From contig NZ_AMZQ01000012.1 of assembly GCF_000313615.1 (NCBI RefSeq), forward strand, positions 37,217-101,216: DNA of 64,000 nucleotides, given 5' to 3'. The DNA is from Campylobacter showae CSUNSWCD (lineage in GTDB: Bacteria > Campylobacterota > Campylobacteria > Campylobacterales > Campylobacteraceae). Positions 34,924 through 63,760 of the stretch are shown one piece after another. Position 1 is the stretch's first letter, and each line of letters starts with the position of its first letter. The position numbers were made by a program, and so were the translations under genes. Under the pieces are notes generated by a model, which was not told the DNA's origin, made no database searches, and worked only from the letters and a program-made list of their open reading frames with translations.

Positions 34924-36195
34924 ATGCAAAAAGAGACGATCGCCACGCACTATGGCTACGACACCAAGGCAGGCCCCGGCGCCATGGCGGTGCCGATTTA
35001 CCAGACTACGGCTTATGATTTCGGTAGCGCCGAGACGGCCGCGGCGAGATTTCAGCTAGAAGCTCCTGGCCACATCTATACAAGGCTGGGCAACCCAACG
35101 ACGGACGTGCTAGAGAGCCGTATAGCCGCGCTCGAGGAGGGCTCAGCCTCTATCGTGACGGCCAGCGGTCAGGCGGCGATTTTTTACTCGATCGCAAATT
35201 TAGCCGCAGTCGGCGACAACATCATCGTGGCAAAGAAAATTTACGGTGGCACGATGGTTCTTTTTATGCACACGCTTAAGCGTTTCGGTATCGAGGCGCG
35301 AGTGTTTGACAGCGACAGCGCGGACGATCTTGAAAATTTGATCGACGATAAAACTCGCGCGATATTTTTCGAGACGCTATCAAACCCGCAAATCGCAATA
35401 CCAAATTTTAAAAAGATCGTCGAGATCGCGGACAAGCACGGCGTCGTAACGATCGCCGATAACACCGTGCCTACGCCGATCATTTTCCAGCCGCTAAATC
35501 ACGGCGTAGACGTCGTCGTGCATAGCGCTAGCAAATATATCTGCGGCCAAGGTCTAAGCCTATCTGGCGCGGTCGTCGCTAGCAAAAATTTAAACGCTAA
35601 GTTAGTCGGTAACGCCAGGTACGCGCACTTTAACGAGCCTGATGAGAGCTATCACGGGCTAGTTTACGCGCAAATGGCGGATAAATTTGACATCTATACG
35701 CTGCGCATGAGAGTGGCTTTGGTGCGCGACATAGGCGCTACGATCTCGCCTTTTAACTCATGGCAGCTGATACAGGGGCTTGAGACGTTAAGCGTTCGTA
35801 TCGAGAGACACTCGCAAAATGCGCGCAAGATCGCCGAGTTTTTAAACTCGCATAAACATGTCAAGCGCGTAACCTACCCTGCGCTAAAAAGCGATCCCGA
35901 GCACGAAAAGGCGCAAAAATACTTTAAAGACGGTATGGCTAGCGGGCTAATGTGCTTTGAAACCGATAGCTTTGAACGCGCCGTAAAGATGCTGGGCAAA
36001 GTAAAGCTATTTAAAATCGTCGTAAATATCGGCGACTCAAAGTCACTCATCACGCACCCGGCCTCCACTACGCATCAGCAGCTCTCGAGCGAGGAGCTAA
36101 CGAAAGCTGGCATAACAAAAGAACTAATCAGAATAAGCGTCGGCCTAGAAAACGCCGACGACCTCATCGCCGATCTGGCGCAGGCTTTGGAGTAA
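34924..36195 (+). CDS. metY: O-acetylhomoserine sulfhydrylase (MetY)
   Basis: 423 residues. PLP enzyme of the Cys/Met metabolism family making homocysteine from O-acetylhomoserine and sulfide. PLP lysine is Lys204 in HSASKYICGQG; YTRLGNPTTDVLE near 52-64 and ASGQAAIFYSIANL near 80-93 are typical, and the C terminus RISVGLENADDLIADL is diagnostic. Slightly longer than MetB/MetC types, which supports MetY. Strong AAGGAG site. Convergent with the phase-variable gene downstream. Confidence 0.92.
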   Translation: MQKETIATHYGYDTKAGPGAMAVPIYQTTAYDFGSAETAAARFQLEAPGHIYTRLGNPTTDVLESRIAALEEGSASIVTASGQAAIFYSIANLAAVGDNIIVAKKIYGGTMVLFMHTLKRFGIEARVFDSDSADDLENLIDDKTRAIFFETLSNPQIAIPNFKKIVEIADKHGVVTIADNTVPTPIIFQPLNHGVDVVVHSASKYICGQGLSLSGAVVASKNLNAKLVGNARYAHFNEPDESYHGLVYAQMADKFDIYTLRMRVALVRDIGATISPFNSWQLIQGLETLSVRIERHSQNARKIAEFLNSHKHVKRVTYPALKSDPEHEKAQKYFKDGMASGLMCFETDSFERAVKMLGKVKLFKIVVNIGDSKSLITHPASTTHQQLSSEELTKAGITKELIRISVGLENADDLIADLAQALE

Positions 36196-36358: not shown

Positions 36359-36819
36359 CTACTTGTCCTTGTTCTTATCGGCTTTTTCCTTTATCTCTTC
36401 CGCCGCCTTTAAGTCTAGTTGCGCCTGCTTAAACGCTTTACGTGCCTTATCTACCCGGCGAGAGTTTTTAACGCTGGCGTCATCGGTATAAACCTTTTCT
36501 GCTTCCTCAAGCTCGGTTTTAGCCTTACCGAAATTCTGCTGCGCTGCCTCAAGCTTATTAGTAGCTTTGTCGCCGCCTGCTAGCTCGGCTTTTGACGTTA
36601 CCTTGCCAGTTACTGGGTTTCTGCCGATAGTCATATCAAGCTCGCGTTTGGCGCGCTCCGCAGTGCCGCGATTAACGCCGCACTCTTCCTTGCCGCCCAT
36701 CATAACCCCCCCCCAATATATTTAGGTCTATTTTTCGGGTCATCGCAATCAACCTTAGCAAAAGCGCTTAAATTAAACGCGCTTAAAAGTAAAGTTATAA
36801 TTAGTGCTTTATTTTTCAT
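36359..36819 (-). CDS. Phase-variable exported coiled-coil protein (poly-G tract, currently off)
   Basis: Reading from ATG 36819 (AAAGGCG upstream) gives a signal peptide, MKNKALIITLLLSAFNLSAFA, then VDCDDPKNRPKYIGGG encoded at a run of nine G (36706-36714). With nine G the frame runs into TGA at 36700-36702 and gives only about 39 residues. With ten G it continues into a 114-codon open frame to 36359, making a 153-residue protein with two cysteines (25 and 47) and an Ala/Lys/Glu-rich helical C-terminal half. Long G tracts are the standard contingency switch in Campylobacter, so this is most likely an on/off gene rather than a dead one. Family not recognised; probably periplasmic. Confidence 0.75.
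36706..36714 (-). repeat. Homopolymeric G9 contingency tract
   Basis: Nine consecutive G on the coding (minus) strand within codons for Gly-Gly-Gly. Gain of one G restores the downstream frame. Confidence 0.9.
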
Positions 36820-36961: not shown

Positions 36962-38407
36962 TTACGCCGTAAACGTCTTTAAGGTTTCGTTGTATTTGTT
37001 TTCGTCCTCGCACTGGATCAGTAGCAAGTCGCCATCCTCAAATACTGATGAGCCCGTCGGTTTGATGTATTCGCCCTTTCGCTTGATGAGTAGCACCAAA
37101 AAGTCGCTAGGAAGCTCGAGCTCGGCTAGGTTTTTACCCACGACTTCGGCGTCAAAGCGTATAGTGTGCTGACGTAAAGTGTGGTAAAAGATCGGCAAGT
37201 TCGACATCTCGACCTCTTCGGCTACGACCTCTTCTTTGACGCCGCATTTTTGCGCGACCTTTTCTAGCGTCATACCTTGGATGATGATCGAGACGAACAC
37301 GACGAAAAATATCGTGTTAAAAATCAGCTCCGAGTTTGGCAAATTTGCCCCGAACGGATAGGTCGCAAGTACGATAGGAACGACGCCGCGAAGCCCGACC
37401 CACGAGATAAACATCTTTTCTTTCACGTTGTAACGCGAAAAAAGTAACGACGCGAAAACGCCCACCGGACGCGCGATAAACATGATCCAAAACGCGATCA
37501 CTGTGCCCGCAAGCGCGACGGCGGGCAGCTGAGAAGGATTTACCAAAAGTCCCAGCGTCAAAAAGATGACGATCTGCATCGCCCACGCGATACCGTCGTG
37601 AAAACCGATCAAATTTTTCTTATGCGCGAACTCTTTTTTATTTATAAACATACCCGCGATATAAACAGCCAAAAAGCCGTTGCCGCCGACCTTGCCCGCT
37701 AGCACGTATAAAAGCATCACCCAAGCCATCGAAAAAACAGGATATAGCCCCCAGTACTCAAGCCTTAGACGGTTAAAAAGCCCAGGTAGCGCGACGCCAA
37801 ATACATAGCCCATCAGCCCGCCGAGTAAAAACTGCTTGATGAGTGCGACAGTGATGTCAGAGGCGTCTGGGACGGTGTTTAGGGCGATGATTTGTATCAT
37901 TGTGACAGTGAGGAAAATCGCCATCGGATCGTTTGAGCCAGATTCTAGCTCCAAAAGCGGTCGGATGTTATTTTTTAGCAAAATTTCCTTCGCTCCAAGG
38001 ATCGCAAACACCGCCGCAGCGTCGGTCGAGGAGATGATCGCTCCAAAAAGCAAGGCTTCAAGCCAAGTTAGCCCTAGTAAAAATTTAACCAAAAGTGCGA
38101 CCAGAGCCGCCGTCAGCACGACGCCAACGGTCGCGAGCATGATGCCACTCATCATGATAGGCTTTATCGATTTTAAATTCGTATCAAGCCCGCCAGTGTA
38201 GAGGATAAAAATAAGTGCGATTATGCCCACATCATGAGCGATGAGCTGGCTATCAAAGGCGATGCCTAGCAGTCCGTCCGAGCCAGCCAGCATCCCAACC
38301 GCCAAAAATACGACTAACGACGGGATACCGAATCTATCTGAAACCTTGCTAGAGACGATACAAGCGATAAGTAGAATAGAAAAAAATAGTAAAAAAGTTT
38401 CTAACAT
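36962..38407 (-). CDS. Cation/proton antiporter with C-terminal TrkA-C domain (NhaP2-like)
   Basis: 481 residues. CPA1-type membrane exchanger with about twelve hydrophobic segments; the ion-site region holds LESGSNDPMAIFL (about 153-165) and the family stretch WVGLRGVVPIVLATYPF near 350. The last 80 residues form an RCK-C/TrkA-C ligand domain (NLAELELPSDFLVLLIKRKGEYIKPTG). Best fit is K+/H+ antiport as in NhaP2/CvrA. In C. jejuni a Kef-like gene follows hspR at the same place. Confidence 0.88.
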   Translation of the reverse strand: MLETFLLFFSILLIACIVSSKVSDRFGIPSLVVFLAVGMLAGSDGLLGIAFDSQLIAHDVGIIALIFILYTGGLDTNLKSIKPIMMSGIMLATVGVVLTAALVALLVKFLLGLTWLEALLFGAIISSTDAAAVFAILGAKEILLKNNIRPLLELESGSNDPMAIFLTVTMIQIIALNTVPDASDITVALIKQFLLGGLMGYVFGVALPGLFNRLRLEYWGLYPVFSMAWVMLLYVLAGKVGGNGFLAVYIAGMFINKKEFAHKKNLIGFHDGIAWAMQIVIFLTLGLLVNPSQLPAVALAGTVIAFWIMFIARPVGVFASLLFSRYNVKEKMFISWVGLRGVVPIVLATYPFGANLPNSELIFNTIFFVVFVSIIIQGMTLEKVAQKCGVKEEVVAEEVEMSNLPIFYHTLRQHTIRFDAEVVGKNLAELELPSDFLVLLIKRKGEYIKPTGSSVFEDGDLLLIQCEDENKYNETLKTFTA

Positions 38408-63721: not shown

Positions 63722-63760
63722 AAGGATTGGGTTTATTCACCCCCCCCAATCCTTTCTATA
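63722..63760 (+). terminator. Intrinsic terminator of ftsZ with C8 run in loop
   Basis: AAGGATTGGG (63722-63731) pairs with CCCAATCCTT (63745-63754) around a loop containing part of a run of eight C (63740-63747), then TTTCTATATA. Extra or missing C would change loop size and register of the stem. Confidence 0.75.

What the first reader, a model, noticed from the sequence alone, without database searches (positions are those of the whole stretch)
36359..36819. Poly-G phase-variable exported protein gene
From ATG 36819 the frame codes a signal peptide and then meets nine G at 36706-36714. With nine G a TGA follows at once; with ten G a further 114-codon open frame is joined, giving a 153-residue secreted, Ala/Lys/Glu-rich helical protein with two cysteines. 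Poly-G switches are well known in Campylobacter surface genes, but I do not recognise this protein. An on/off exported protein downstream of heat-shock genes is the best candidate here for something undescribed.
Basis: partly seen in the sequence, partly recalled or inferred. Interest (0 to 1): 0.75.

Follow-up and report, generated by a model that had tools for sequence, protein, structure and literature searches.

The report
Switchable exported gene from plasmid machinery
A small exported-protein gene of a Campylobacter, split in this assembly at a run of nine G that differs in length between relatives, belongs to an unnamed family found next to plasmid-transfer genes, so it may be a switchable barrier to incoming plasmids.

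Summary
A signal-peptide frame (36700-36819, minus) runs through nine G (36706-36714) to a stop, and a second frame (36359-36703) continues from there. Homologues lie in 11 of 48 genus genomes. Of 15 copies of this subfamily, own included, 11 are read in one frame, signal peptide included; the four broken ones break at a G run in the same Gly-Gly stretch. At this locus three genomes have 7, 8 and 9 G. The downstream frame looks selected even between two broken copies (dN/dS 0.14), and G runs of nine or more exceed expectation here (8 seen, about 0.9 expected). A contingency gene is likely; switching itself is not shown. No Pfam, NCBIfam, PHROG, PADLOC or PDB match is significant, but some members sit directly behind a polytopic membrane protein in type IV secretion-like clusters, and its C-terminal part plus the exported gene can recur as one block (similar arrays with another exported family). 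The layout resembles conjugative entry-exclusion genes; no homology to TraY or ExcA was found. Exclusion is an inference.

The parts
36700..36819 (-). 5' frame: signal peptide, first Cys, DPKNRP segment, ends in TGA one codon after the G run
   Evidence: homologous to the 5' part of one-frame relatives
36706..36714 (-). run of nine G in the Gly-Gly stretch where the frame is lost
   Evidence: 7, 8 and 9 G at the same locus in three genomes
36359..36703 (-). 3' frame, 114 codons: second Cys, TIGRNPVTGKV segment, C-terminal helical hairpin
   Evidence: hairpin from the model of relative L015
36809..36919 (-). 36-codon remnant of a plasmid-type gene (matches the C-terminal part of an 89-aa ORF that has a sub-threshold DUF5338 match), overlapping the start codon
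   Evidence: (68% identity over 25 residues, E 1.9e-7); also present in L115
36303..36327 (-). perfect-stem hairpin 3' of the gene, possible end of transcript
   Evidence: (z-score of the 119-nt region -3.8); the consensus terminator scan did not list it
36962..38407 (-). upstream neighbour, Na+/H+ exchanger; its 3' side is a variable insertion site in relatives
34924..36195 (+). downstream neighbour, Cys/Met metabolism PLP enzyme, convergent

Best explanation
The locus carries a chromosomal, stand-alone member of a small exported-protein family, some members of which belong to Campylobacter-type conjugative (type IV secretion-like) clusters. In this assembly it is in an interrupted (off) state. 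Slippage at the G run probably moves it between interrupted and one-frame states over generations (inferred). When made, the protein is exported, has two cysteines and a two-helix hairpin, and most likely acts in the recipient envelope as a specificity-type partner of the polytopic transfer protein encoded next to its relatives, i.e. as an entry-exclusion-like barrier to related conjugative elements (inferred). Shown: frames, tract, relatives, frame conservation, genomic link. Inferred: switching within a strain, location, exclusion.
For: One-frame relatives with signal peptides. The 4 broken copies among 15 all break at G runs in the same short stretch. Tract lengths 7, 8 and 9 at one locus. 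dN/dS 0.14 (dS about 1.1) between two broken copies. Excess of runs of nine or more, with three of the others inside a cytosine methylase, an N6-methylase/specificity and a type I specificity frame. Members lie 76 bp (G008) and 109 bp (G131) behind a polytopic protein; in G008, upstream of it lies a VirD4/TrbC-type ATPase gene, and G131 holds a homologue of part of that ATPase. A remote relative lies 77 bp behind the polytopic protein on plasmid pCORI-1. A 1.23-kb block of that protein's C-terminus plus the family gene recurs in the G008 chromosome at 90% nucleotide identity. A repeated array of C-terminal fragment plus exported gene occurs in G140. The coupling ATPase is homologous to R64 TrbC (E 6e-22 for the single comparison), and in R64 excA follows traY after 70 bp. 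Exclusion genes are often adjacent to the gene of their VirB6/TraG/TraY target (PMC11493245, passages; PMC8923210, passages).
Against: No reads or colonies examined; tract length in a 23-contig draft can be wrong. The low dN/dS is an average over history, so recent breakage of each copy is not excluded. No sequence match of the family to ExcA, or of the polytopic neighbour to R64 TraY or the DotA_TraY model; structure models gave no significant match. MOB-suite calls all 12 plasmid records with the neighbour protein non-mobilizable, so 'conjugative' rests on gene content. Only 4 of 17 copies are next to the transfer protein or its fragment; 13 stand alone. In 2 of the 5 closest transfer clusters the slot holds an unrelated gene. 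The own genome has no match to that protein.
Confidence: 0.42

Rival explanations
1. Phase-variable exported protein whose job has nothing to do with conjugation: a surface or secreted factor facing the human host or other bacteria, carried by mobile elements as cargo.
For: 13 of 17 copies stand alone; C. concisus has another exported protein carried both by a plasmid and by the chromosome, Csep1 (PMC5893538, parts 1-2 of 6 and passages); G runs are common in Campylobacter surface genes (recalled).
Against: The same slot behind the transfer protein in two genera and, for a remote relative, on pCORI-1, and a block shared with that protein's C-terminus, are not expected of free cargo.
Confidence: 0.25
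2. A structural accessory of the transfer apparatus (VirB5-like or chaperone-like) kept by chance in chromosomes.
For: Signal peptide plus helical hairpin. The remote relatives (G131, G047, pCORI-1) share a KPSYDMPGGKGSLDRI-type segment with the protein encoded just before the polytopic one (best 17 residues, E 3e-7 for the single comparison); the four concisus/showae members compared did not show it.
Against: The slot is occupied by different protein families in related clusters; chromosome copies keep a conserved frame although the own genome has no match to the transfer protein.
Confidence: 0.15
3. A dying gene: G runs in Gly codons slip by mutation bias and the copies are pseudogenes in early decay; no switching.
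For: Interrupted in 4 of 15 copies; a fifth copy (L017) is cut short by a late stop.
Against: Both halves remain open, and the 3' frame has dN/dS 0.14-0.21 at dS 0.74-1.24 among the three copies of this locus and 0.23 between the two broken C. concisus copies; the breaks sit at G runs; G runs of 6-7 are otherwise rarer than expected in this genome while runs of nine or more are in excess.
Confidence: 0.13
4. Assembly or sequencing error in a homopolymer; the gene is always in one frame in the living strain.
For: Draft of 23 contigs; one contig (C17) ends exactly in a G run.
Against: Three other genomes also have broken copies at G runs (G008, G022, G039), one of them a single-contig genome (G039).
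Confidence: 0.08

Closest known systems
Poly-G contingency genes of Campylobacter (restriction-modification and surface genes; recalled)
   Same: Coding G run of nine, length differs between relatives, frame lost at the run; three other nine-G runs of this genome lie in methylase or specificity frames
   Different: Within-strain switching not tested; product is of an unnamed family
Conjugative entry exclusion: TraY/ExcA of IncI R64, TraG/Eex of SXT/R391 and IncC, TrbK of RP4 and pKPC_UVA01
   Same: Small exported protein encoded directly behind a polytopic transfer protein, 76-109 bp here and 70 bp in R64; coupling ATPase homologous to R64 TrbC; partner fragment and gene recur as one block
   Different: No detectable homology to ExcA or TraY; stand-alone chromosomal copies; G run; no functional test
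Orphan surface-exclusion factors Sfx on mobilizable elements
   Same: An exclusion-type gene without its transfer machinery (PMC11493245, passages)
   Different: Sfx acts against TraN; no G run mentioned in the passages seen; sequence relation not tested
Csep1 of C. concisus
   Same: Exported, on plasmid or chromosome, same genus
   Different: 216-223 aa with three disulfide hairpins against about 140-173 aa and two conserved Cys here; the PDB sequence searches gave no significant relative (whether that copy holds the Csep1 entry was not checked)

Membership tests
Poly-G phase-variable gene | Coding homopolymer beyond chance | tested here: met
Poly-G phase-variable gene | Length differs between close relatives at the same site and changes the frame | tested here: met
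   7, 8 and 9 G at the same locus, one of three in one frame
Poly-G phase-variable gene | Mixed lengths within one strain | not testable with these tools
   no reads held
Poly-G phase-variable gene | Coding potential kept under selection on both sides | tested here: inconclusive
   3' side dN/dS 0.14 between two broken copies; the 5' side is open but its selection was not measured
Conjugative entry-exclusion protein | Gene adjacent to the VirB6/TraG/TraY-type target gene | tested here: inconclusive
   4 of 17 copies adjacent to a polytopic protein of a T4SS-like cluster or to its fragment, but that protein matches no TraG/VirB6/DotA_TraY model
Conjugative entry-exclusion protein | Sequence relation to a known exclusion protein | tested here: not met
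   no Pfam or NCBIfam match at cut-off; hhalign to R64 ExcA E 0.48
Conjugative entry-exclusion protein | Reduces uptake of related plasmids in the recipient | not testable with these tools
   needs mating assays
DotA/TraY (for the neighbour protein) | NCBIfam TIGR04346 at cut-off, or profile match to R64 TraY | tested here: not met
   0 of 8 genomes over cut-off, one weak hit (E 1.03) elsewhere in G045; hhalign probability 0.8%
Csep1 | About 220 aa, six cysteines in three hairpins | tested here: not met
   140-173 aa, two conserved Cys

The most novel reading that the evidence does not exclude
A chromosomal exclusion gene captured from conjugative elements and put under poly-G control, so that single cells of one clone toggle between refusing and admitting related conjugative plasmids, beside G-run control of restriction-modification genes in the same genome: a bet-hedged gate for gene uptake. 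On the elements themselves, exclusion partners are exchanged as C-terminal-module plus exported-protein cassettes, leaving arrays of spare cassettes.
Probability: 0.2. Interest if true: 0.82.

Novelty: new variant of a known kind. Interest (0 to 1): 0.55.

Why it matters
If exclusion is right, conjugation barriers could be phase-variable, which would make plasmid spread in Campylobacter a cell-by-cell lottery and give a direct way to ask whether cells hedge between keeping out and taking in foreign DNA. Even without that, it defines an unnamed exported family and a cassette-exchange pattern in Campylobacter-type transfer systems.

Tried and rejected
Csep1 identity: rejected on size and cysteine pattern. 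Phage origin: no match of one member (L012) among 50,697 phage records, none confirmed in one viral-contig scan (18 stretches matched a pattern), PHROG hits weak (best E 0.015). Plasmid collection: no match with L012 (this search does not reach the remote pCORI-1 relative), while the neighbour protein matched 12 records. Family fold: pLDDT 64, no match at E 0.001 or better, generic helical hairpins at the top. Neighbour fold: pLDDT 57, no match at E 0.001 or better. Weak library hits were taken as noise: NCBIfam PgrA surface-exclusion domain in 9 of 12 members (best E 0.007) and eight other models in 1 to 5 members each, best E 0.0055, cut-offs not reached in the one member shown in full; Pfam five models in 1-2 of 13 members, best E 0.013; PADLOC one model in 1 of 13, E 0.005; PDB best E 0.007. 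Promoter and terminator consensus scans near chance. Papers: the searches listed nothing that by title or start of abstract describes this family or phase-variable exclusion in Campylobacter; beyond listings I saw only the papers named in the report (PMC5893538 parts 1-2 of 6 and passages; PMC12904459 abstract and sections 6-7; PMC11493245, PMC8923210, PMC12624023 passages).

Full report
What is there. On the minus strand an ATG at 36819 opens a frame with a Sec-type signal peptide (by eye), a cysteine and a DPKNRP segment; it meets nine G (36706-36714) and, after one more codon, a TGA. A second frame, 36703-36359 (114 codons), goes on from there.

Relatives. The 3' part alone found homologues in 11 of 48 genus genomes (16 matches). 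A profile of intact relatives found 12 of 153 family genomes and 7 of 398 order genomes, in 2 of 87 genera. The named records are five loci from four genomes, three Campylobacter concisus and one C. showae. I count 17 copies in 12 genomes. Leaving out the two remote copies (G047, G131), 15 remain, the own one included: 11 are read in one frame from signal peptide on (one of these, L017, ends early at a TAA), and 4 (own, L013, L014, L023) are broken. The four breaks lie in the Gly-Gly stretch at a G run of six or more; two intact copies also have a run there. At the very locus of the window three genomes have runs of 7, 8 and 9 G, and one of the three is in one frame; in C. concisus copies a second run a few codons on has 6, 6 and 9 G, one of three in one frame. 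L023 differs from its intact relative in the A run beside the G run as well, so its break may not be a G change.

Is it more than chance. In the own genome, exact G runs of 6, 7 and 8 number 25, 4 and 4, and there are 8 tracts of nine or more, two of them 13 long. A first-order expectation extrapolated from the window gives 127, 23, 4.2 and about 0.9. Of the seven besides the window's own, three nine-G runs lie inside a C-5 cytosine methylase, an N6-methylase/specificity and a type I specificity frame; one 13-G run lies inside an 87-codon frame of no clear meaning, one nine-G and one 13-G run at the edges of frames, and one nine-G run ends a contig. The 3' frame shows dN 0.156, dS 1.09 (ratio 0.14) between the own copy and L014, both broken, 0.17 and 0.21 in the pairs with L015, and 0.23 between the two broken C. 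concisus copies L013 and L023. dS near 1 makes these rough, and the ratio is an average over history, so it does not exclude recent breakage. This is the pattern of a gene that is used at least part of the time.

Where the family comes from. Upstream lies, after one more gene, a VirD4-type ATPase (in G008: TrbC model E 1.1e-29 but below cut-off; TraG-D_C over cut-off; in G131 the homologous ORF is a 129-residue piece). On plasmid pCORI-1 the gene in the same slot encodes an exported protein with two cysteines that matches the G047 member at E 5e-10 in a single comparison. I read the next gene at 14 loci of the polytopic protein. Leaving out the two most distant, G128 and G151, it encodes a protein with an apparent signal peptide (by eye) at 7 of 12: G008, G131, pCORI-1/G004, three in G140 and one in G034; at G065, G001, G106, G045 and G089 it does not or no gene is close. 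G151 could be read as an eighth (8 of 14). Only G008, G131 and, remotely, pCORI-1 are of this family. Against the label 'conjugative', MOB-suite calls all 12 plasmid records with the polytopic protein non-mobilizable.

Cassette behaviour. In G008 contig C1, a 1.23-kb block holding the last 203 residues of the polytopic protein (98.5% identical) plus a family gene matches the C11 cluster at 90% nucleotide identity, between chromosomal genes that look like ribonucleotide reductases (by eye). In G140 a full-length polytopic protein is followed by exported protein, C-terminal fragment, exported protein, C-terminal fragment, exported protein; those exported proteins are another family. Such arrays of spare C-terminal modules with a partner gene are what one expects when a recognition domain and its cognate partner are swapped together (inference).

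The window's locus. The intergenic space upstream holds a 36-codon remnant of which 25 residues match the C-terminal part of an 89-residue ORF found upstream of C. concisus copies (68%, E 1.9e-7); that ORF has a sub-threshold DUF5338 match (E 1.8e-4). The site 3' of the exchanger gene carries the family gene in three genomes and other DNA in the two next closest (G035, G038), which have no family match. The 5' halves at this one locus are of different types by eye, so alleles look mosaic. The own genome has no match to the polytopic protein.

How it most likely works. Shown: exported-type protein, interrupted at a G run whose length differs between genomes, conserved reading frames, link of some members to transfer clusters. 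Inferred: slippage switches expression; the product sits in the envelope; it recognises a transfer protein and blocks entry of related elements. Published statements that exclusion genes are often adjacent to the gene of their target (VirB6-type TraG, or TraY), and that orphan exclusion factors exist on mobilizable elements, fit this (PMC11493245 and PMC8923210, passages only; PMC12624023, passages). In R64, excA follows traY after 70 bp; here the gaps are 76 bp (G008), 109 bp (G131) and 77 bp (pCORI-1). Against it: no sequence relation to ExcA or TraY, no DotA_TraY match (0 of 8 genomes over cut-off), no significant fold match, 13 of 17 copies stand alone, and the shared motif segment of the remote relatives was not seen in the four concisus/showae members compared.

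Judgement. Phase-variable gene: about 0.75. Conjugation-derived family: about 0.7. Exclusion as the function: about 0.4. The whole chain, as written under best explanation: 0.42 at most, since the steps depend on one another.

Noticed in passing
G140:C24, locus L144 2546-8323: Array of a full-length polytopic transfer protein and two C-terminal fragments alternating with three exported ankyrin-like proteins (ankyrin-like by eye).
   Followed up: partly
L063 12177-13817 and 9474-9884; L101 8820-10004 and 12286-12834: A KPSYDMPGGKGSLDRI-type segment is shared by the protein before the polytopic one and the exported protein after it (E 3e-7 in G131, 0.006 within pCORI-1).
   Followed up: partly
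window 63740-63747: A second G run (eight, minus strand) outside long frames near the window end, within inverted arms AAGGATTGGG and CCCAATCCTT.
   Followed up: partly
L107, L112, L113 (own genome): Nine-G runs inside an N6-methylase/specificity, a cytosine methylase and a type I specificity frame: likely phase-variable restriction-modification.
   Followed up: partly
G000 contig C17 end (L109): A contig ends exactly in a nine-G run, as if the assembly broke there.
   Followed up: no
G008:C11 (L094-L097): The 66-kb contig with the transfer cluster also carries a relaxase-like ORF and what look like type III CRISPR and reverse-transcriptase genes (by eye).
   Followed up: no
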